Shown piece by piece: positions 1,639 through 10,003 of a stretch of DNA of 64,000 bases (the first letter of the stretch is position 1; the number at the start of each line of letters is the position of its first letter). The notes under the pieces were generated by a model. That model saw nothing but the letters and a program-made list of their open reading frames with translations. It did not search any database and was not told the DNA's origin. The stretch is from an uncultured Erysipelotrichaceae bacterium (GTDB lineage: Bacteria > Bacillota_I > Bacilli_A > Erysipelotrichales > Erysipelotrichaceae), in contig CAMCRE010000007.1 of the NCBI GenBank assembly GCA_945877255.1, positions 1 through 64,000 of the forward strand. Reading direction: 5' to 3'. Both the position numbers and the translations under genes were made by a program.

Positions 1639-1773
1639 TTATTTATTTTTTAATTCTGCTACTTGTTTCTCTAATTCTTCTACTCTTCTAATTGTCTTAA
1701 ACAACAATGTTGGTACTAGAATAATTAAAGTAATAGCTGATACAGTAGATACTACTGATAATACTTCAAACAT
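1639..1773 (-). CDS. Small membrane protein, 44 residues
   Basis: It has a good GGAGA ribosome site and one hydrophobic segment (about residues 2-25, ending LIILVPTLLF) followed by a charged amphipathic helix (RRVEELEKQVAELKNK). The layout, a start MFEVL, one membrane helix and a charged tail, resembles the short holin-like or type I toxin peptides of Gram-positive phages, but the match is weak. It is read between the 41-residue peptide gene and the Cro-like gene. Confidence 0.6.
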   Translation of the reverse strand: MFEVLSVVSTVSAITLIILVPTLLFKTIRRVEELEKQVAELKNK

Positions 1774-1798: not shown

Positions 1799-1909
1799 TT
1801 GTAATTTAGTCAAATGTGTGCTATAATGTTCAAGAACACCCCCACCACTCTAGCACAAGTAAGTGGGGGATGAAAACTATTTTTTAGTTTTCTTTGTTCT
1901 TGTTTTTTT
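1799..1909 (+). ncRNA. Candidate antisense small RNA to the 41-residue peptide mRNA
   Basis: A promoter TTGTAA-N17-TATAAT (1799-1827) predicts a start near 1834. The transcript would contain a GC-rich hairpin (CCCCCAC at 1839-1845 with GTGGGGG at 1863-1869) and end in a second hairpin (AAAACTA 1873-1879, TAGTTTT 1885-1891) followed by a T-rich tract to 1909. That makes about 75 nt. Its last 30 bases are complementary to the end of the peptide gene at 1877-2002, the convergent layout of type I toxin-antitoxin RNAs. Confidence 0.45.
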
Positions 1910-2002
1910 GGAGATTGACCTCACAGCTACGATTGCCGTTGCAACCGCCGAAGTTGTAAGAGCAATCTCTTTTATTATCTCTAACACTTTTTTAAAGCAC
2001 AT
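1877..2002 (-). CDS. Small basic peptide, 41 residues; candidate type I toxin
   Basis: The ATG at 2002 has AAGGAGG eight bases upstream. The peptide has a moderately hydrophobic middle (about residues 7-29, EIIKEIALTTSAVATAIVAV) and a lysine/arginine tail (SKKTRTKKTKK), a shape shared by small membrane-active peptides. A GC-rich hairpin follows the stop, and a plus-strand promoter produces an RNA complementary to its 3' end. It is the first gene after the repressor-controlled promoter, so it would be silent in the lysogen. No Fst-type P-x-x-x-G motif is present, so family membership is unproven. Confidence 0.5.
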   Translation of the reverse strand: MCFKKVLEIIKEIALTTSAVATAIVAVRSISKKTRTKKTKK

Positions 2003-2025
2003 CACTTTTTCCTCCTTACACCATT

Positions 2026-2154: not shown

Positions 2155-2853
2155 ATGCACGCAAAATCAAGAGAAAAATTTACCAAAATGCTAAATTGGT
2201 TAATTAAAGATGAAGGAATTACTCCGACCGAACTAGCAAGACGAATTAATTATCCTGCTACAACTGTTTATAATTGGTGTCAAGGCGTTCGTTTTCCGAA
2301 GGCTGAATCTTTGGAGGATATAGCAAATTATTTCAATGTACTGCCGTCTGATTTAATTTCAGACGAAATAAAATCGACTACCCTCACCCCCCTAAACGTT
2401 GAAATAAAATATGATGACTATTTCCCTATGCACTTTAAAACAGGATTATCTGCTGGTATTTTTAGCGAACCTCCTGAATATCAAGATTTGGAAGAAAACA
2501 TTGTATACGTTCCTATAAAATTTTTACCACGAAAAAAACGACTTGCAGCCTTTAAAGTAAACGGCGAGTCTATGAATAATGTTATACCTCATGGATCTAT
2601 TGCAATAATCGAAGATACTTATAATAATGCCATTCCGATTAAAAACGGTGATATTATTGCTGTTGCTTGGGGTAACGATATGACACTAAAACGTTTTTAT
2701 GATGACGGAGATAAAATTGTCCTGTCTCCTGATAGTACACTTAAATCATTCACACCTATAATTTTAGATAAATCGGAATATATAACTATTATCGGTAAGT
2801 TAGTTTGGTGGTCTAATCCTGATGATGTGGTGGAGCAGTATTACGAAAGGTAG
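2155..2853 (+). CDS. CI-type phage repressor with self-cleavage (S24/LexA-like) domain
   Basis: The 232-residue protein has an N-terminal XRE helix-turn-helix (about residues 23-50, TPTELARRINYPATTVYNW) and a C-terminal LexA/CI peptidase fold. The predicted cleavage bond is Ala100-Gly101 (GLSAGIF), the nucleophile Ser139 (VNGESMN) and the general base Lys179 (TLKRFY). A repressor of this kind keeps the lytic promoter shut and is destroyed after RecA activation by DNA damage. AAGGAGG precedes the ATG. It stands between divergent promoters that both contain dyad operators, and it is the first rightward gene of the lysogeny side. Confidence 0.93.
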   Translation: MHAKSREKFTKMLNWLIKDEGITPTELARRINYPATTVYNWCQGVRFPKAESLEDIANYFNVLPSDLISDEIKSTTLTPLNVEIKYDDYFPMHFKTGLSAGIFSEPPEYQDLEENIVYVPIKFLPRKKRLAAFKVNGESMNNVIPHGSIAIIEDTYNNAIPIKNGDIIAVAWGNDMTLKRFYDDGDKIVLSPDSTLKSFTPIILDKSEYITIIGKLVWWSNPDDVVEQYYER

Positions 2854-2910
2854 AAAGGAATAATATATAATAAACATGTACCAAATAGCTTGTTTTCAAA
2901 AAAAGGTGTT

Positions 2911-2946
2911 TTTTCTATAAGTGCGATATTATAACATGTGAATTAC
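2911..2946. repeat. Direct repeat, copy A (upstream of the AbiF RNA)
   Basis: This copy starts TTTTCTATAAGTGCGATATT and continues to ACATGTGAATTAC. About 34 bases are shared with copy B at 4269-4303 and about 20 with copy C at 4449-4473. It ends 28 bases before the TTGACA of the AbiF RNA promoter. Confidence 0.8.
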
Positions 2947-2974: not shown

Positions 2975-3003
2975 TTGACAGTATATGTCAATTTTGGTAT
3001 AAT
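2975..3003 (+). promoter_or_regulatory. Consensus promoter for the AbiF leader RNA, with inverted repeat over the -35
   Basis: TTGACA at 2975-2980 and TATAAT at 2998-3003 are separated by exactly 17 bases, a perfect consensus. ATTGACA (2974-2980) and TGTCAAT (2986-2992) form a 7-bp inverted repeat over the -35, a possible operator. Confidence 0.85.
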
Positions 3004-3009
3004 TTAAAC

Positions 3010-3052
3010 ATAGGATTAGGTCAGTAAGCATATGGTGCGCTGGCCATTTTTT
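3010..3052 (+). ncRNA. Short leader/antitoxin-type RNA upstream of AbiF, ending in a terminator
   Basis: The predicted transcript starts near 3010, seven bases after the -10. GGTCAG (3019-3024) pairs with CTGGCC (3040-3045), with an inner GCA/TGC pairing, and is followed by six T's, so most transcripts should stop before the gene at 3064. Promoter, short RNA, leaky terminator, then a HEPN protein is the order seen in RNA-controlled toxin systems. A conserved abiF RNA motif has been described upstream of such genes; whether this is a member was not tested. Confidence 0.6.
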
Positions 3053-3063
3053 ATGAGGTAAAA

Positions 3064-4017
3064 ATGAAGGAACATAAAACATTTAATCAACAATTGACAA
3101 TTCTAAGGTCTAGAGGAATGACTGTTCCAACAAATGGACACCCTAAAAGATTTTTAGAGCAAGAAAATTATTATAATGTAATCAATGGATATAAAGATTT
3201 GTTTTTAGCGAGAAATGCAGATAATACTATCATTACACCTGAACAATATATGATAGGAACGCATTTTGATGAGTTAAAATCATTATTTTTGTTTGATAGA
3301 GACTTGAGAATTTTATTTTTAGAGTATATTTTAATTTTTGAAAATTCATTTAAGACAACTTTAGCATACGAATTTTCTAAGAAATATAAAAAAATAAATT
3401 CCTACTTAGATATAAATAATTATATCTCTAATGATCCCAAGAATGTGTTAAATCAAATATCAATTTTGACAAAAACGATACATGAAAAAGTAGATAAACG
3501 CGGAGCTGTAAAACATTATATCGAAGAACATGGACATGTCCCCCTATGGGTACTAGTCAACTATTTAACTATTGGGAATCTTTCTCATCTGTATGGTGTG
3601 TTAAAGGATTCAGATAAAAATACTATTGCTAAATTTTATGCAGATAAGTTTTTTAAACAAAATAATTGTGCGAGTAATGACTTTAAACTTTCCAGTAAAG
3701 AGTTCAGTTCAGGATTGAAAGTTATTAATTTAGTTAGAAATATTTGTGCTCACGATGAAAGACTATATAATCATAATTATGGTTCTGTATCAATTTCTAA
3801 TATAGCTCGATTTTTAAATTTTCCAATACAAGATAACCGTAGGTTGATCGTAGCTATTCTTTTTTTGAAGATAGTGTTAGATAAAAAATATTTTATACAA
3901 TTCAAGAAAAAATTGTTAAAATTATTTTCAAAATATAATGGAAACTTTAGTACCGTCAAGTTTGAAGATATTGTTTTCATGATGGGAATTAAGATTAATG
4001 ATATTAATGATTTGTGA
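3064..4017 (+). CDS. AbiF/AbiD-like (Abi_2) abortive-infection HEPN protein
   Basis: The 317-residue protein matches the Abi_2 family: an early FNQQLTILRSRGM segment, then RFLEQENYYNVINGYKDLF, and a HEPN-type R-x4-H motif, R225-N-I-C-A-H230, followed by DERLYN. HEPN motifs of this kind are the active sites of ribonucleases, so the expected action is cleavage of RNA to stop phage growth. GAGGT precedes the ATG. The gene lies between a consensus promoter with its own short terminated RNA and a strong terminator (4034-4064), so it is a self-contained cargo cassette. The second HEPN residue pair, if any, could not be assigned. Confidence 0.88.
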   Translation: MKEHKTFNQQLTILRSRGMTVPTNGHPKRFLEQENYYNVINGYKDLFLARNADNTIITPEQYMIGTHFDELKSLFLFDRDLRILFLEYILIFENSFKTTLAYEFSKKYKKINSYLDINNYISNDPKNVLNQISILTKTIHEKVDKRGAVKHYIEEHGHVPLWVLVNYLTIGNLSHLYGVLKDSDKNTIAKFYADKFFKQNNCASNDFKLSSKEFSSGLKVINLVRNICAHDERLYNHNYGSVSISNIARFLNFPIQDNRRLIVAILFLKIVLDKKYFIQFKKKLLKLFSKYNGNFSTVKFEDIVFMMGIKINDINDL

Positions 4018-4092: not shown

Positions 4093-4245
4093 ATGGCAAA
4101 TCGAATTAAGGGAATTACAATCGAAATTGGTGGAGATACAACGGGTCTTGATAAGCCTCATTCGACCATTAGAAATACACAGCCGACCCTTGTTAATGTT
4201 ACAACAAAAGTACTCAAGTGGGTATTTTTATTTTCCCTTTTTTGA
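4093..4245 (+). pseudogene. Remnant of a phage tail tape-measure gene (first ~50 codons)
   Basis: A strong ribosome site (AAAGGAGGT) leads into MANRIKGITIEIGGDTTGLD, which I recognise as the start of tail tape-measure proteins of Firmicutes siphophages. The next residues (TIRNTQPTLVNVTTKVLK) still fit the usual K-x-I-x-x-T-Q-x-x-L-x-x-V-x-x-L-L-K pattern with a few residues lost, then the frame stops at TGA. Tape-measure proteins are normally several hundred to over a thousand residues, so this is a fragment left by deletion of the late genes, with the AbiF cassette and direct repeats on either side. Confidence 0.7.
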
Positions 4246-4262
4246 CTACTTTTATTGTGACA

Positions 4263-4303
4263 TTGACATTTTTCTATAAGTGCGATATTATCACATGTGA
4301 ATT
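4263..4303. repeat. Direct repeat, copy B, with possible promoter
   Basis: The bases 4269-4303 repeat copy A almost exactly. TTGACA (4263-4268) is 17 bases before TATTAT (4286-4291), so this copy could itself be a promoter. It contains the palindrome TCACATGTGA. Confidence 0.75.
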
Positions 4304-4333
4304 GGCATCATATGATGAAATGATGTAATTTTA

Positions 4334-4362
4334 TTGACAATTAGGAATATATTATGTAGAAT
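4334..4362 (+). promoter_or_regulatory. Promoter of the second RNA unit
   Basis: TTGACA at 4334-4339 and TAGAAT at 4357-4362 are 17 bases apart. The -35 starts 31 bases after repeat B, close to the 29-base offset between repeat A and the AbiF RNA promoter. Confidence 0.8.
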
Positions 4363-4368
4363 ATAGTT

Positions 4369-4445
4369 ACGTTAGCTGCCGAGAAATTCTACGTGAACCG
4401 GATGTGCGTAAAGAGGGTATGTGATTTAAACACATAGCCTTTTTT
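4369..4445 (+). ncRNA. Second structured RNA with terminator, upstream of Fic
   Basis: The predicted transcript of about 77 nt has a stem TCTACG (4388-4393) with CGTA-A-AGA (4407-4414), and a terminator hairpin (GG-TATGTG at 4415-4423 with CACATA-GCC at 4431-4439) followed by six T's. A CCG near 4379-4381 could pair with the CGG in the first loop. It has no reading frame and lies in the same repeat-promoter-RNA-terminator order as the AbiF RNA, but is followed by a Fic gene that has its own promoter. It may be an orphan antitoxin-type RNA; this is inference. Confidence 0.55.
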
Positions 4446-4448
4446 CAT

Positions 4449-4473
4449 TACTATATTATCACATGTGAATTAC
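4449..4473. repeat. Direct repeat, copy C
   Basis: The core TATTATCACATGTGAATTAC is shared with copies A and B; the upstream CTATAAGTGCG half is missing. It starts three bases after the T-run of the second RNA unit and lies about 100 bases before the Fic gene. Confidence 0.75.
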
Positions 4474-4506
4474 ATTTGATAATAAAACCTTAACAATATA
4501 ATTTAC

Positions 4507-4530
4507 AATTTACAAAAATAAGTGATATAA
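4507..4530 (+). promoter_or_regulatory. Likely promoter of the Fic gene
   Basis: A TATAAT at about 4526-4531 is preceded by TTTACA-like -35 sequence about 18 bases upstream. It shows that Fic need not be transcribed from the RNA unit upstream. Confidence 0.5.
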
Positions 4531-4571
4531 TATTAAAAACTTTTTTTGAATAAGTGAAAGGGGGATAGAAT

Positions 4572-5795
4572 ATGACAGATTATAAGAAGCTACGAACTTT
4601 ATTTTATATCGATGAACAAAGTTATGTAGAAGAATATCAAAAACGAATTACCTCACATTCTACATATTTAACAGATTTTGAAATAAATGCGTTTAATAGT
4701 GAAAAAAAATATAATTTATTTTTCTTAATTAATAGACAACTTATTTCATTAATAGAGAAAGTAAATTTAAATAGTAAGATAATTAGAAATCTACAACAAA
4801 AAATCCCCAAAGTAGCTCATGAGCAGTTGTTTATTAGTTTATTGGTTAATGAATTACAGAGTACAAATGAAATTGAAAATGTAAGGAGTACTAAAAAAGA
4901 ACTTCATAAGATTGCTGAAATGGTTCAGAATAATGATAAAAAAATGATAAACTCAAAAAGATTTATAGGTTTAGTATCACAGTATTTATCAGATTATTTT
5001 GAGATTACTAAAGTAGAAGATTTTAGAAAATTATATGATGAGGTTGTTGAAAATGAGATCGATGTTAAAGATAAATTAGATGGGATCTTATTCAGAAAAG
5101 AGCCAGTTTCTGTAGTATCTTCAACTAAAGTAACACATAAAGGAATAATACCTGAAGAAAAGATTATAAAAAAATTAGAAGAATTATTGCAGTTTAGAAA
5201 ATCGGATAAATATCCTCCGTTGGCACAAATTATGTTACAACATTACATGTTTGAATATATTCATCCTTATTATGATGGAAATGGAAGAATAGGAAGATTT
5301 ATGATTTATCAGGATTTAAAAAAAGTGCTAGATGATTTTTCTGCAATTACATTTTCATATTCGATAAATAGAAATAAGAATAAATATTATTCTGCATTTG
5401 AAGAAACATCAAATGTATTAAATAATGGTGAAGCTACAGAGTTTATTTCTGAAATGCTTTCTATATTAAATTATGGTCAAGAATTGATGATTGAAAAATT
5501 AAGAAAAAGTGTATATGATTTTGACAAAGCATTAAAACATTTATTTGATTTAAATTTCACGGATGAAGTTAAAGATCTAATGTATATCTTAATTCAAAGT
5601 AAATTATTTTCTACTGATTTTAATAGAATAAATTACAAAGGTTTAAGAGATATGATAAAAAAAGGAAAAACTAAACTCAAAAAAAACTTATTAAATTTAG
5701 AACAACTAGGTGTTGTGGAGAAAATTTCATCAAGACCATTAACATATCAAATAACTGATGAGTATATGGAGAGAGAAATATTAAAAAATGTATAA
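4572..5795 (+). CDS. Fic-domain protein with N-terminal inhibitory helix
   Basis: The 407-residue protein has the Fic active-site motif HPYYDGNGRIGR at 231-242 (catalytic His231), typical of enzymes that transfer AMP from ATP to protein hydroxyls. Upstream, residues 98-103 (TNEIEN) fit the inhibitory motif (S/T)xxxE(G/N), so it is a class II enzyme held off by its own N-terminal helix. The C-terminal 80 residues look like a winged helix (KGLRDMIKKGKTKLKKNLLNL). GGGGG precedes the start. It sits among phage-element cargo, so a role in host takeover or defence is plausible; the target is unknown. Confidence 0.92.
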   Translation: MTDYKKLRTLFYIDEQSYVEEYQKRITSHSTYLTDFEINAFNSEKKYNLFFLINRQLISLIEKVNLNSKIIRNLQQKIPKVAHEQLFISLLVNELQSTNEIENVRSTKKELHKIAEMVQNNDKKMINSKRFIGLVSQYLSDYFEITKVEDFRKLYDEVVENEIDVKDKLDGILFRKEPVSVVSSTKVTHKGIIPEEKIIKKLEELLQFRKSDKYPPLAQIMLQHYMFEYIHPYYDGNGRIGRFMIYQDLKKVLDDFSAITFSYSINRNKNKYYSAFEETSNVLNNGEATEFISEMLSILNYGQELMIEKLRKSVYDFDKALKHLFDLNFTDEVKDLMYILIQSKLFSTDFNRINYKGLRDMIKKGKTKLKKNLLNLEQLGVVEKISSRPLTYQITDEYMEREILKNV

Positions 5796-5856
5796 ATAAG
5801 ATTTTTATACCGACATGGAACATATCGTTTGGCAAATTTAAGTTTTTTGTGTATAG

Positions 5857-6045
5857 TATAATTACATCAAGATATGCTCTTAAGAGCTACTATGAAAGAA
5901 ATTCATAAAAGGAGAGTTTTAGCTCTCCTTTTATGCTGTAAATCCCTGTAGTCGATGTTTCGTACAGTGAACGCTATACTTTTAAACTTACCACAGGCAA
6001 TAAGCGGTGGGGCATTGTTAATACAGTGCCTTTAATTTTTAAATA
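5857..6045 (+). ncRNA. Candidate structured RNA downstream of Fic
   Basis: A TATAAT at 5857-5862 lacks a clear -35. Downstream are GCTCTTAAGAGC, a perfect 13-bp hairpin (5904-5916 with 5923-5935, six-base loop), a CTGTA/TACAG stem (5946-5967), and a terminator-like hairpin GGCATTGT-TAAT-ACAGTGCC (6011-6030) followed by a T-rich tract. The first hairpin could instead be the Fic terminator. The density of hairpins suggests one RNA of about 175 nt, but no known family was recognised. Confidence 0.35.
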
Positions 6046-6508: not shown

Positions 6509-7543
6509 TCACTTTTTTTGTTTTGCTGCATACTCTAACACACTAACTAACGTACTTCCCTTATCTCTAAACAAATGTTTATATGTACGTTCGAGTTCTT
6601 TTACATCATGCCCCATAAATTGTGCAATGCTATCCTTATCACAATATCCTAAAACATCATAACTATACACAATCAAATTAGACGCACACGTGTGCCTAAA
6701 AGCATGACAATGTGTGTTGTAATATTTTTTTACAAACTTTTGAATGTTATTAGGTTGCATAAATGTAATACCCCCGAATAAAAAACCGTCTTTTACATAA
6801 AGCTGTTTTTTAATGATTTCTTTTGCACGAGCAGTAAGTGCAACCTTTCGATAACTAGCTTTTGATTTTAACTTATCCCATCGCCATTGTTTTAATTTTT
6901 TATCATAAATATATTGTCTATCAATCACAATATGATCTTCATGTATTCTATCAAATGTAATAGATAAACATTCATTAATACGCAATCCAGTATCCAGTAA
7001 GAATAGCACAATATCATTTAATGCTACATTGGAATTTCTAAAGATGTGTCCATCTTCAATTAAACTTGTTTCATTAAATAGCTCAATTTCTTTTTTAGGC
7101 GTTCTCTTTTTAGGAATAATAAAGTCTGCTAACTTCTCTTGGATGTATCGATATTTGTATCCGAAATTTAAAGCAGCTTTTAATACACGCACATTACTTG
7201 TGGATAAATGAATACACATTCTATTCACTTTATTCACATTCAGTTCATTTAAATATATATTATTTTTTTCTAGTGCGTTCTTTAGGCTATTGAAATGTGC
7301 TAATGCTGATTGTGAATAATTTCTTGAAGAAATAAGTGCATCGATTAGATCAAACAACTTCATGCCATGTACTTCTAAAATTTTACTTTCTAATTCTTTT
7401 TTATATTCTTTATCAAAAGCTAACGCTTGTTTTTTACTCGTGAAATCAGTTTGTTTGTAGTAGCTTTCATATTGCCCGTGAGAATTTTTGTATTTACCAT
7501 AAACATAAAATCTTTTTGTTTTTTCATTAATTTTAATCGCCAT
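6509..7543 (-). CDS. int: Tyrosine-recombinase integrase of the element
   Basis: The 344-residue protein has an N-terminal arm-binding segment (residues 1-50, KNSHGQYESYYKQTDF), a SAM-like core-binding domain and a C-terminal catalytic domain. The catalytic set is visible: Arg188 (DTGLRINE), Lys225, His280-x-x-Arg283 (HAFRH), His312 (MGHD) and the nucleophile Tyr321 (TYKHLF). It inserts and excises the element by site-specific recombination. It marks the right end of the element: the tandem TTTTTACAAG repeats and the terminator of the pyruvate formate-lyase genes follow within 120 bases. An AGAGAGGT ribosome site precedes the start. Confidence 0.95.
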   Translation of the reverse strand: MAIKINEKTKRFYVYGKYKNSHGQYESYYKQTDFTSKKQALAFDKEYKKELESKILEVHGMKLFDLIDALISSRNYSQSALAHFNSLKNALEKNNIYLNELNVNKVNRMCIHLSTSNVRVLKAALNFGYKYRYIQEKLADFIIPKKRTPKKEIELFNETSLIEDGHIFRNSNVALNDIVLFLLDTGLRINECLSITFDRIHEDHIVIDRQYIYDKKLKQWRWDKLKSKASYRKVALTARAKEIIKKQLYVKDGFLFGGITFMQPNNIQKFVKKYYNTHCHAFRHTCASNLIVYSYDVLGYCDKDSIAQFMGHDVKELERTYKHLFRDKGSTLVSVLEYAAKQKK

Positions 7544-7670: not shown

Positions 7671-7910
7671 TTACATACTTTCGTGCATTGTACGTGCGAT
7701 AACGTCGTCTTGTTGCTCTTTTGTTAATTTATTGAAGTTTACTGCATACCCAGAAACACGAATAGTTAATTGTGGGTATTTTTCTGGATGTTTTTGTGCA
7801 TCTAATAAAGTATCACGATCAAAAACGTTTACGTTTAAGTGGTGCCCTCCATTTTCAGCGTATCCATCAATTAAAGATACTAAGTTATCAATTTTGTTTG
7901 TGTTTGACAT
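7671..7910 (-). CDS. Separate glycyl-radical domain of pyruvate formate-lyase, 79 residues
   Basis: This is the C-terminal end of pyruvate formate-lyase as its own gene: [17 protein letters not shown], then [15 protein letters not shown] with the radical-bearing Gly54, ending in IARTMHESM. In ordinary enzymes these residues close the 745-760 residue chain. The start has its own ribosome site (AAAGGGAAAG) 20 bases after the stop of the large gene, and the two are in different frames. It differs from GrcA (about 127 residues), the spare part that repairs an intact enzyme, because here the large protein lacks the domain, so this peptide must supply it. An activating enzyme is needed to form the radical; none is in the window. 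Confidence 0.95.
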
Positions 7911-7930: not shown

Positions 7931-9928
7931 TTAATCTTTCCCTAATGATTTTGGCACAATCGAGAATGTGTTTGAAATTCCATCTTTTGAATGTTCGTAT
8001 GGTAGTTTAGCAACAGATTCTAACGAAGCTAATGCACCATTTTTATCACGTCCATGCATTGGGTTAGCACCTGGTGCAAACGGTTCACCGGCTTTACGTC
8101 CATCTGGTGTATTACCTGTTTTTTTACCGTACACTACATTTGAAGTAATCGTTAAGATACTCATTGAAGGTACACCATTACGGTATGTTTGGTGTTTTCT
8201 AATTTTGTTCATGAAGTTTTTCACTAATTCAGCAGCAATTTCATCTACCCTATCATCATTGTTACCAAATTGTGGGAATTCTCCTTCAGTTGCGTAATCA
8301 ACTGCAACACCATCTTCATCACGAATAACTTTAACTTTTGCATATTTAATAGCACTTAATGAATCAGCTACTACAGATAATCCTGCTATTCCAGTCGCAA
8401 ATAGACGACGAACATCTCTATCATGTAACGCCATTTCACTTCTTTCATACGCATATTTGTCGTGCATATAGTGAATAATGTTTAATGTATTCACATATAA
8501 CTCCGCCAACCATTCTAATACTTGATCATATTTCACAATTACTTCATCATATGATAAGTACTCACTTCTAATTGGCTCAAATCTTGGTGCAACTTGAGCT
8601 TTACTCTTCTCGTCTTGTCCACCATTAATCGCATATAATAACGCTTTTGCAAGGTTTGCACGTGCTCCGAAGAATTGCATGTCTTTACCAACTCTCATAG
8701 ATGATACACAACATGCAATCGCATAGTCATCACCCATGTCTGTTCGCATTAAATCATCATTTTCATATTGAATTGATGAAGTTTGAATTGACATTTTAGC
8801 ACAGAAACGTTTAAATCCGATTGGTAATTTTGTTGACCATAAAACAGTTAAGTTCGGTTCTGGTGCAGGACCTAAAGTTGTCAAGGTGTGAAGTACACGG
8901 AATGAATTTTTTGTTACTAGTGTTCTTCCATCAACACCCATACCACCAATAGATTCTGTAACCCATGTTGGATCCCCAGAGAATAAATCATTATATTCCG
9001 GTGTTCTCATGAATTTAACTAAACGCAATTTCATTACAAAGTGATCCATCATTTCTTGTGCTTCACTTTCTGTAATGATTCCTTCTCGCAAGTCTCTTTC
9101 AATGAAAATATCTAAGAACGTTGTAACACGCCCTAAAGACATCGCCGCTCCATTTTGTTCTTTTATCGCAGCTAAATATCCAAAGTAAGTCCACTGAATA
9201 GCTTCTTTTGCTGTTTTAGCTGGTTCCGAAATATCAAAACCATATTCAGAAGCCATTACTTTTATTTCATTTAATGCTTTAATTTGCTCAGAAATTTCTT
9301 CGCGATCACGAATTTTATCAGAAGTCATTGCTCCTTCCAATAATTTTAATCCAGCCTTTTTGTCTTTAATTAAGAAGTCGATACCATATAATGCTACACG
9401 TCTGTAATCACCAATAATACGCCCTCTTCCATACGCATCTGGAAGTCCTGTTATAATTCCTGATCTTCTCGCTGCTTTCATTTCATCAGTATACGCATCA
9501 AACACTCCTTCATTATGTGTTTTACGATACTTCGTGAAAATTTCTACTACTTCTGGATCGATTTCAAATCCATATGATTTTAATGCTGTTTCTGACATTC
9601 TAATACCACCAAACGGTTGTAGTGAACGTTTAAATGGTTTATCTGTTTGGAATCCTACGATTGTTTCTAATTCTTTATTCAAATAACCAGCACCATGTGA
9701 TGTAATTGTTGATACTACTTTCGTATCAGCATCTAGTACACCACCGTTTGCTTTTTCTGCCTTATTTAACTCCATCACTTGTGCCCAAAGCGTTTTTGTT
9801 GCTTCAGTAGCATCAGCTAGGAATGTGTCATCACCTTCATAAGGCGTGTAGTTTTTTTGGATAAAGTCACGTACGTCAACATCTTTTGTCCATTTTCCTT
9901 CTACAAAATCTTTCCATCCTTGATACAT
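7931..9928 (-). CDS. pflB: Pyruvate formate-lyase body lacking the glycyl-radical domain
   Basis: The 665-residue protein converts pyruvate and CoA to acetyl-CoA and formate in anaerobic fermentation, in the cytoplasm. It has the usual start ([10 protein letters not shown]), the active-site pair Cys406-Cys407 (IACCVSSMR) and [11 protein letters not shown], but ends at [16 protein letters not shown], exactly where the glycyl-radical domain would begin. That domain is the next gene, 20 bases on. The start at 9928 is chosen over an upstream ATG because AGAGGT lies in front of it and MYQGW matches the family start. A promoter TTGCTT-N17-TAAAAT lies at 10004-10032. Confidence 0.96.
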
Positions 9929-10003
9929 GTTCTTACCTCTTTTCTTTATATGTTTCGATCGATTACATTCATACACAATAATAAGCGTATAGGATGCACC
10001 TTT

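What the first reader, a model, noticed from the sequence alone, without database searches (positions are those of the whole stretch)
4269..4445. Second RNA unit built like the AbiF one but without a toxin gene
Seen: the order repeat, 30-base gap, TTGACA-N17 promoter, structured RNA, terminator is repeated here. The RNA (4369-4445) differs in sequence from the first, can form a stem at 4388-4414 with possible loop pairing to CCG at 4379, and is followed by a Fic gene that has its own promoter. Inference: it may be the orphan antitoxin RNA of a lost AbiF-like gene, a decoy against a related system, or a regulator of Fic.
Basis: partly seen in the sequence, partly recalled or inferred. Interest (0 to 1): 0.66.

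Follow-up and report, generated by a model that had tools for sequence, protein, structure and literature searches.

The report
Orphan AbiF antitoxin RNA in prophage
A small RNA beside a prophage integrase is a toxin-less member of the RNA antitoxins that normally sit in front of AbiF toxin genes (relatives of the ancestor of Cas13), and related lone copies recur in other phages, suggesting that phages carry the antidote without the poison to disarm this bacterial defence.

Summary
The described unit is real. RNA2 (window 4369-4445) has an 11/12 sigma70-type promoter, a hairpin and a terminator. It is an orphan member of an AbiF-type antitoxin-RNA subclass that Rfam's abiF model misses. Its core AAATTCTACGTGAACC recurs in hairpins, often in tandem, just upstream of Abi_2/AbiF genes in Erysipelotrichales. 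A model built only from such copies ranks RNA2 first in the window (E 0.021). All AbiF proteins preceded by this RNA class fall in one 15-row clade (support 100/99) that excludes the window's AbiF, whose kin carry the RNA1 class. So RNA2 is probably not that gene's second antitoxin, and the genome has no other Abi_2 gene.

Lone copies are common: 15 strong solo loci in 311 genomes. Five adjoin an integrase and four lie upstream of terminase genes. Four distinct IMG/VR phage sequences also carry one. No Abi_2 gene or Fic motif was found near them. RNA2 lies between phage repressor and integrase. The best reading is a phage-carried, trans-acting AbiF-neutralising RNA, like pseudo-ToxI and Racr; the neutralising function is inferred, not shown. 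The 35-nt repeat is most likely the end of a decayed IS1202/ISNCY element, present in nine copies. A Fic regulator is not supported.

The parts
2155..2853 (+). Phage CI-like repressor (HTH + S24 peptidase)
   Evidence: Pfam PF00717/HTH; PHROG phrog_4 transcriptional repressor E 7e-33
2910..2944 (+). Repeat copy 1 (most likely the end of a decayed IS1202/ISNCY-type insertion sequence)
2975..3003 (+). Promoter of RNA1/abiF (TTGACA-N17-TATAAT)
3009..3052 (+). RNA1: AbiF-type RNA of a different subclass, cognate-like to the window's abiF
   Evidence: fold z -3.82; same RNA upstream of the nearest AbiF relatives L075 and L078; no R1 match
3064..4017 (+). abiF (Abi_2 family HEPN-type protein, 317 aa)
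   Evidence: PF07751 E 5.9e-41; phrog_2158 abortive infection protein E 5.9e-75; PDB 8vz6 Abi family protein E 3.3e-9; only Abi_2 gene in the genome
4269..4303 (+). Repeat copy 2 (IS-end remnant)
   Evidence: 97% to copy 1
4334..4362 (+). Promoter of RNA2 (TTGACA-N17-TAGAAT)
   Evidence: 11 of 12
4369..4445 (+). RNA2: orphan AbiF-type antitoxin RNA (transcript limits inferred)
4373..4409 (+). AbiF-type hairpin of RNA2; core AAATTCTACGTGAACC at 4384-4399
   Evidence: R1 covariance model 14.8 bits, best of window; core also in G152 and, with 1 mismatch, upstream of Abi_2 genes
4411..4442 (+). Intrinsic terminator of RNA2
   Evidence: sequence AAGAGGGTATGTG...CACATAGCCTTTTTT; folds
4450..4474 (+). 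Repeat copy 3 (3' part only), between RNA2 terminator and Fic
4502..4531 (+). Promoter-like site of the Fic gene (TTTACA-N18-TATAAT)
4572..5795 (+). Fic-domain protein (407 aa); neighbour, not part of the RNA system
   Evidence: PF02661 E 1.8e-12; no Fic motif near other solo RNAs
6509..7543 (-). Phage-type tyrosine integrase (end of the prophage)
   Evidence: PF00589; phrog_1 integrase E 3.5e-28

Best explanation
RNA2 is an orphan AbiF-type antitoxin RNA carried in the repressor-to-integrase ('moron') slot of a prophage. Shown here: it belongs to an RNA subclass whose other members form a promoter-hairpin-terminator unit, often tandem, directly upstream of one clade of Abi_2/AbiF genes. It has no such gene here. 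Similar toxin-less copies recur in prophages and phages. Inferred: it is transcribed from its own promoter, and its hairpin binds and silences AbiF-family HEPN ribonucleases of that clade in trans. A phage or lysogen carrying it would be protected from a host's or competing prophage's AbiF, as a counter-defence RNA mimic. Its own neighbour AbiF is served by RNA1, of another subclass.
For: Homology: a 33-nt match to a G152 RNA (88%, E 4.6e-4). The exact 16-nt core occurs in only two of 316 genomes (G000, G152). The one-mismatch hits include hairpin-terminator units upstream of Abi_2 in G087 (tandem pair) and G151, plus a lone copy in G006. A covariance model from 13 Abi_2-linked copies, RNA2 excluded, puts RNA2 first in the 64-kb window (E 0.021 versus 0.35 for the next, filters off). 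On 70 Abi_2 loci the same model hits only RNAs upstream of Abi_2 genes and RNA2. Structure: 19 solo copies (RNA2 among them) keep 98.9% of pairs, with 5 pairs changed on both sides. Cognate clade: all 11 R1-bearing AbiF proteins lie in one 15-row clade (100/99) that excludes the window's AbiF; the genome has one Abi_2 gene. Solo copies: 15 strong solo loci in 311 genomes; of 16 first counted, Abi_2 homology turned up only at L173, which was then dropped. Five solo copies adjoin integrases and four terminase genes. Six IMG/VR contigs (four distinct sequences) carry one, with no Abi_2 found near. [quoted passage not shown]
Against: No expression or binding data. RNA2's own model score is low (14.8 bits against 24-50 for the other strong copies) because its basal stem is rebuilt (CCG/CGG with mismatches), so it could be decaying. 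By model score alone it does not reach E 0.1 in its whole genome. No second strain with RNA2 is available to show constraint. Six of the 15 solo copies lie in no obviously mobile context.
Confidence: 0.55

Rival explanations
1. RNA2 is a dead relic: an AbiF operon of the R1 clade was captured next to the insertion-sequence end, the toxin gene was lost by deletion, and the RNA is decaying without function.
For: Basal stem degenerate and low model score. Surroundings are scrambled: three IS-end remnants and what looks like a fragment of a tape-measure gene at 4094-4190. Decayed loci exist: in G084 (C1:262073) a weak R1 hit lies near an Abi_2 gene with nine stop codons.
Against: Promoter (11/12), loop core and terminator are intact. 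The 16-nt core is identical to a copy in another genus. Many solo copies in phages keep the paired structure. No Abi_2 remnant other than the 3064-4017 gene is found in the window.
Confidence: 0.25
2. RNA2 is a second antitoxin for the window's own AbiF, as in the tandem RNA pairs of other loci.
For: Other AbiF loci carry two RNA copies; RNA2 is only about 350 nt downstream of abiF.
Against: In those loci both copies are upstream of the gene and of the same subclass. The window's AbiF lies outside the clade that uses R1-type RNAs, and its nearest relatives use RNA1-type RNA. RNA1 does not match R1 at all.
Confidence: 0.08
3. RNA2 regulates the downstream Fic gene in cis (leader or attenuator).
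For: It lies directly upstream of fic on the same strand.
Against: It ends in a terminator; fic has its own promoter-like site; none of the other solo RNAs has a Fic motif within its fetched stretch.
Confidence: 0.04
4. Phage-borne solo RNAs serve a phage function unrelated to AbiF, such as integrase/terminase control or RNA processing, having been recruited from an AbiF RNA.
For: Recurrent positions next to integrase or just upstream of terminase. The terminase-upstream copies checked score only 6-9 of 12 for a consensus promoter.
Against: Two quite different genomic positions and varied neighbours; the hairpin shape and loop of toxin-linked copies are retained.
Confidence: 0.08

Closest known systems
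AbiF antitoxin RNAs (Rfam RF03085 abiF; RCd22 of C. difficile phi027, PMC12373285; AbiFr of Prevotellaceae PbAbiF, PDB 8vz6)
   Same: Promoter, short RNA with a hairpin, then terminator; homologues of RNA2 sit directly upstream of Abi_2 genes, often in two copies (RCd22 also has two motifs); AbiF genes of the same Pfam family.
   Different: RNA2 has no toxin gene behind it; neither RNA2 nor RNA1 matches RF03085, so it is a sequence subclass outside that model; antitoxin activity untested.
Pseudo-ToxI of phage PhiTE (PMC3475682)
   Same: A phage-borne toxin-less copy of a type III antitoxin RNA; there shown to neutralise ToxIN during infection.
   Different: Different toxin family (ToxN, not a HEPN protein); PhiTE is a flagellum-dependent myovirus, while the window's element has the repressor and integrase of a temperate phage; activity shown there, inferred here.
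Racr RNA anti-CRISPRs (PMC10651486)
   Same: Solitary copies, in phages, of a small RNA that the defence system normally uses itself; mimicry as counter-defence.
   Different: Targets CRISPR-Cas complexes; here the presumed target is AbiF, the family from which Cas13 is thought to have arisen.
IS1202 family / ISNCY insertion sequences (PMC10132070)
   Same: The dispersed repeat abuts an ISNCY-type transposase remnant on C14, ends in ACA-3' in several copies and has an apparent inner repeat of the terminal motif.
   Different: Only solo ends and one broken transposase gene remain in this genome; a dif/Xer target was not shown.

Membership tests
Rfam RF03085 abiF RNA | Scores at or above the curated covariance-model threshold | tested here: not met
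   No abiF match for RNA2 or RNA1 even at relaxed E; the model does reach 28.7 bits (below its cut-off of 37) upstream of another Abi_2 gene in the order (L061)
AbiF-linked antitoxin RNAs, R1 subclass (defined here) | Hairpin with basal stem, 5' A-rich bulge, 3-bp apical stem, short conserved loop (UAYG-type), trailing UGCG | tested here: met
   RNA2 is the best window hit of a model built without it (14.8 bits, E 0.021); identical core to G152; basal stem weaker than in relatives
AbiF-linked antitoxin RNAs, R1 subclass (defined here) | Own promoter before and intrinsic terminator after the hairpin | tested here: met
   TTGACA-N17-TAGAAT, hairpin start 10 nt downstream; terminator fold -14.9 kcal/mol
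AbiF-linked antitoxin RNAs, R1 subclass (defined here) | Abi_2 toxin gene directly downstream | tested here: not met
   Next gene is fic; only one Abi_2 gene in the genome, upstream and of another clade
AbiF-linked antitoxin RNAs | Neutralises the AbiF toxin | not testable with these tools
   No expression or binding data for RNA2
Phage-borne antitoxin-RNA mimic (pseudo-ToxI or Racr-like) | Toxin-less copy carried by a phage or mobile element | tested here: met
   Between phage repressor and integrase; 9 of 15 other solo copies beside integrase or terminase genes; four distinct IMG/VR sequences
Phage-borne antitoxin-RNA mimic (pseudo-ToxI or Racr-like) | Blocks the defence in trans during infection | not testable with these tools
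   Needs infection or toxicity assays
IS1202/ISNCY end (for the repeat) | Adjacent ISNCY-type transposase | tested here: met
   Fragments match NF033594 (E 3.9e-18 and 1.5e-14; two overlapping pieces on C14) beside one repeat copy; not seen at the window copies
IS1202/ISNCY end (for the repeat) | Paired terminal inverted repeats and target duplication of an intact copy | tested here: not met
   The only ISNCY match in the genome is one transposase broken by five stops; no intact copy found, so these are at best relics
Cis-regulator of fic | Homologues of the RNA linked to fic genes | tested here: not met
   No Fic motif in 22 stretches around other R1 RNAs

The most novel reading that the evidence does not exclude
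Phages and prophages of gut Erysipelotrichales widely carry solitary AbiF antitoxin RNAs as dedicated anti-AbiF agents: an RNA-based counter-defence against the HEPN family from which Cas13 is thought to have arisen. They occupy two preferred positions (beside the integrase, and just ahead of the terminase genes), and the window's RNA2 is one of them.
Probability: 0.42. Interest if true: 0.82.

Novelty: new variant of a known kind. Interest (0 to 1): 0.62.

Why it matters
AbiF-RNA pairs are regarded as the ancestor of Cas13, yet the AbiF papers found and searched here describe no RNA-only copies. Recurrent toxin-less copies in phages would show that the AbiF antitoxin RNA has been turned into a weapon by the other side, as happened with CRISPR repeats (Racr) and ToxI. 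They would also give a ready set of natural RNAs for testing what determines AbiF-RNA specificity. It also gives a concrete idea to test for an old observation known here only by its cited title (seen in the reference list of PMC12737573): a DNA region of lactococcal phage sk1 that protects phage 712 from AbiF.

Tried and rejected
(1) The repeat as a CRISPR-like or regulatory element of the RNA units: rejected, because nine copies are scattered near unrelated accessory genes. A dif/Xer site was considered; the ISNCY transposase remnant starting beside one copy favours an IS end instead, although IS1202 elements themselves target dif sites (PMC10132070).

(2) DNA search of RNA2 in phage and plasmid records: no match.

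(3) The viral-contig scan with the exact RNA2 core gave chance hits, several plainly inside coding sequence. L050, L051, L054 and L056 are chance hits in cellular genomes. The G053 hit is only a terminator match.

(4) The genome-contig scan and one viral scan with a narrow pattern returned few or none.

(5) The G080 copy was first counted as solo, then dropped because an Abi_2 start lies at the contig end. The G092 copy lies at a contig end, so its downstream side is unknown.

(6) Lactococcal phage sk1: neither R1 nor Rfam abiF matches. The lactococcal abiF locus itself was not found in the lists shown, so that link is untested, not refuted.

Full report
OBSERVATION. A 35-nt repeat (2910-2944; 4269-4303; 97% identical) is followed after exactly 30 nt by TTGACA-N17-TATAAT (2975-3003) and TTGACA-N17-TAGAAT (4334-4362). 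Each promoter is followed by a short structured RNA. RNA1 (about 3009-3052) folds with z = -3.8 and lies in the leader of the Abi_2 gene (3064-4017, PF07751 E 5.9e-41). RNA2 (4369-4445) folds with z = -2.15 and ends in a hairpin and T-run. The Fic gene (4572-5795) has its own promoter-like site at 4502-4531. Rfam matches neither RNA.

SETTING. The stretch looks like the lysogeny end of a prophage: CI/S24 repressor (2155-2853), abiF, RNA2, fic, then a phage integrase on the other strand (6509-7543). The genome is a 1.26-Mb member of the Erysipelotrichales: records matched in its relatives are Absicoccus porci, Erysipelotrichaceae bacterium OPF54 and Beduini massiliensis. It has one Abi_2 gene only.

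THE REPEAT. A third copy lies just after RNA2 (4454-4471), and six more lie elsewhere in the genome, mostly a short way upstream of accessory genes. Most of the other copies share a longer left part. On contig C14 the repeat directly precedes a broken transposase gene that matches the ISNCY/IS1202 family (NF033594), and several copies end in ACA-3' as IS1202 elements do (PMC10132070). The repeat is therefore most likely a solo end of a decayed insertion sequence, and the identical 'repeat-gap' start of the two units would then reflect where modules joined, not a shared regulatory design. A dif-like site remains a less likely alternative.

WHAT RNA2 IS. A search of 245 genomes of the family gave one convincing relative, in G152 (88% over 33 nt, E 4.6e-4). 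The 16-nt core AAATTCTACGTGAACC occurs exactly only in G000 and G152 among 316 genomes. The one-mismatch hits include a tandem pair in G087 and a copy in G151, each directly upstream of an Abi_2 gene. The architecture is alike: upstream promoter-like sequence, hairpin, then terminator. Reading upstream of further Abi_2 genes gave more copies, usually two in tandem. A covariance model (R1) was built from 13 of these with RNA2 left out. It ranks RNA2 first in the 64-kb window (14.8 bits, E 0.021; next 0.35; filters off). Over 70 Abi_2 loci it hits only RNAs just upstream of Abi_2 genes, plus RNA2. RNA2's score is low because its basal stem is rebuilt (CCG/CGG plus mismatches and an extra outer stem), while core, apical stem and trailing UGCG are intact. 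The score alone would not be significant over the whole genome; the case rests on score, core identity, spacing and context together.

NOT THE WINDOW AbiF's RNA. In a tree of 47 Abi_2 proteins, all 11 that have an R1-type RNA fall in one 15-row clade (support 100/99). The window's AbiF sits outside it with L075 and L078 (100/100), and those two carry an RNA like RNA1. RNA1 is not hit by R1. So two RNA subclasses go with two AbiF clades, and RNA2 belongs with the clade whose gene is absent here.

SOLO COPIES. Over 311 genomes, 9 loci with strong R1 hits have Abi_2 downstream (one cut by a contig end) and 15 have none (one of these at a contig end). A search of their surroundings with 47 Abi_2 proteins found none, and no Fic motif occurs near any. 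Five adjoin an integrase (G084, G057, G072, G094, G092) and four lie just upstream of terminase genes (G166, G024, G208, G006), confirmed by PHROGs for one gene per locus, weakly for G006. The other six have no clear mobile context. An IMG/VR scan with a pattern of another sub-branch returned six phage contigs (four distinct sequences, one the same as G024), each with a solitary RNA and no Abi_2 found near. The hairpin is kept among solo copies: 98.9% of cells paired, five pairs changed on both sides, slid controls at most 41% (the alignment was fitted to the model, which favours it). Several copies, including some beside integrases, have promoter-like sites; the terminase-upstream copies checked score only 6-9 of 12 but most have terminators. 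Four genomes with solo copies (G152, G053, G208, G103) had no Abi_2 match listed, two of them from less complete assemblies.

HOW IT LIKELY WORKS. RCd22 of C. [quoted passage not shown] A toxin-less RNA of this kind, carried by a phage, could bind a host's AbiF and keep it silent. Precedents are pseudo-ToxI of phage PhiTE (PMC3475682) and Racr RNAs (PMC10651486). Shown here: family, subclass, lack of a toxin, phage context. Inferred: transcription, binding, neutralisation. The main rival is a decaying relic.

NOVELTY. No paper found in the held library describes solitary AbiF-type RNAs; subscription papers are mostly not held, and the Cas13-origin paper itself was not read. I rate it a new variant of a known kind.

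Noticed in passing
window 7671-7910 (-) and 7931-9976 (-): Pyruvate formate-lyase is split in two ORFs inside the glycine-radical domain: a 681-aa PFL carrying the first part of Gly_radical and a separate 79-aa ORF with the rest, including RVSGYAVNF. Natural split or a sequencing frameshift.
   Followed up: partly
window 4094-4190: Short ORF (MANRIKGITIEIGGDTTGLDK...) between abiF and the repeat that looks like the start of a phage tape-measure protein; no family match at this length, so the resemblance is from memory.
   Followed up: no
window 5864-5938 (+): A further small-RNA-like unit after fic: promoter-like site (5829-5857), strongly folded stretch (z -4.3) ending in a 14-bp hairpin; not hit by the R1 model.
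   Followed up: partly
window 1877-2005 (-) and 1639-1773 (-): Two small hydrophobic peptides (42 and 44 aa); the first lies beside a CCCCCACC...AGTGGGGG hairpin and resembles a type I toxin locus.
   Followed up: no
G000: C1:181661-, C3:23044-, C3:121354-, C11:8235+, C11:16486-, C14:18947+: Dispersed IS1202/ISNCY-end remnants mostly a short way upstream of accessory genes (acyltransferase, DUF1016/PDDEXK-like nuclease after a KilA-N-like gene, small membrane proteins; names by eye), as if IS ends served as joining points or promoters.
   Followed up: partly
G084:C1:262073-262672: A weak R1 RNA hit (E 0.0105) near an Abi_2 gene carrying nine stop codons: an AbiF operon caught in decay.
   Followed up: no
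G053 (L159), Absicoccus porci: A solo R1 RNA lies near an AAA-ATPase gene that may belong to another defence system (by eye).
   Followed up: no
L061:2202-2242 (-): The Rfam abiF model reaches 28.7 bits (cut-off 37) upstream of an Abi_2 gene of another clade: Rfam's abiF covers only part of the diversity of AbiF-linked RNAs in this order.
   Followed up: partly
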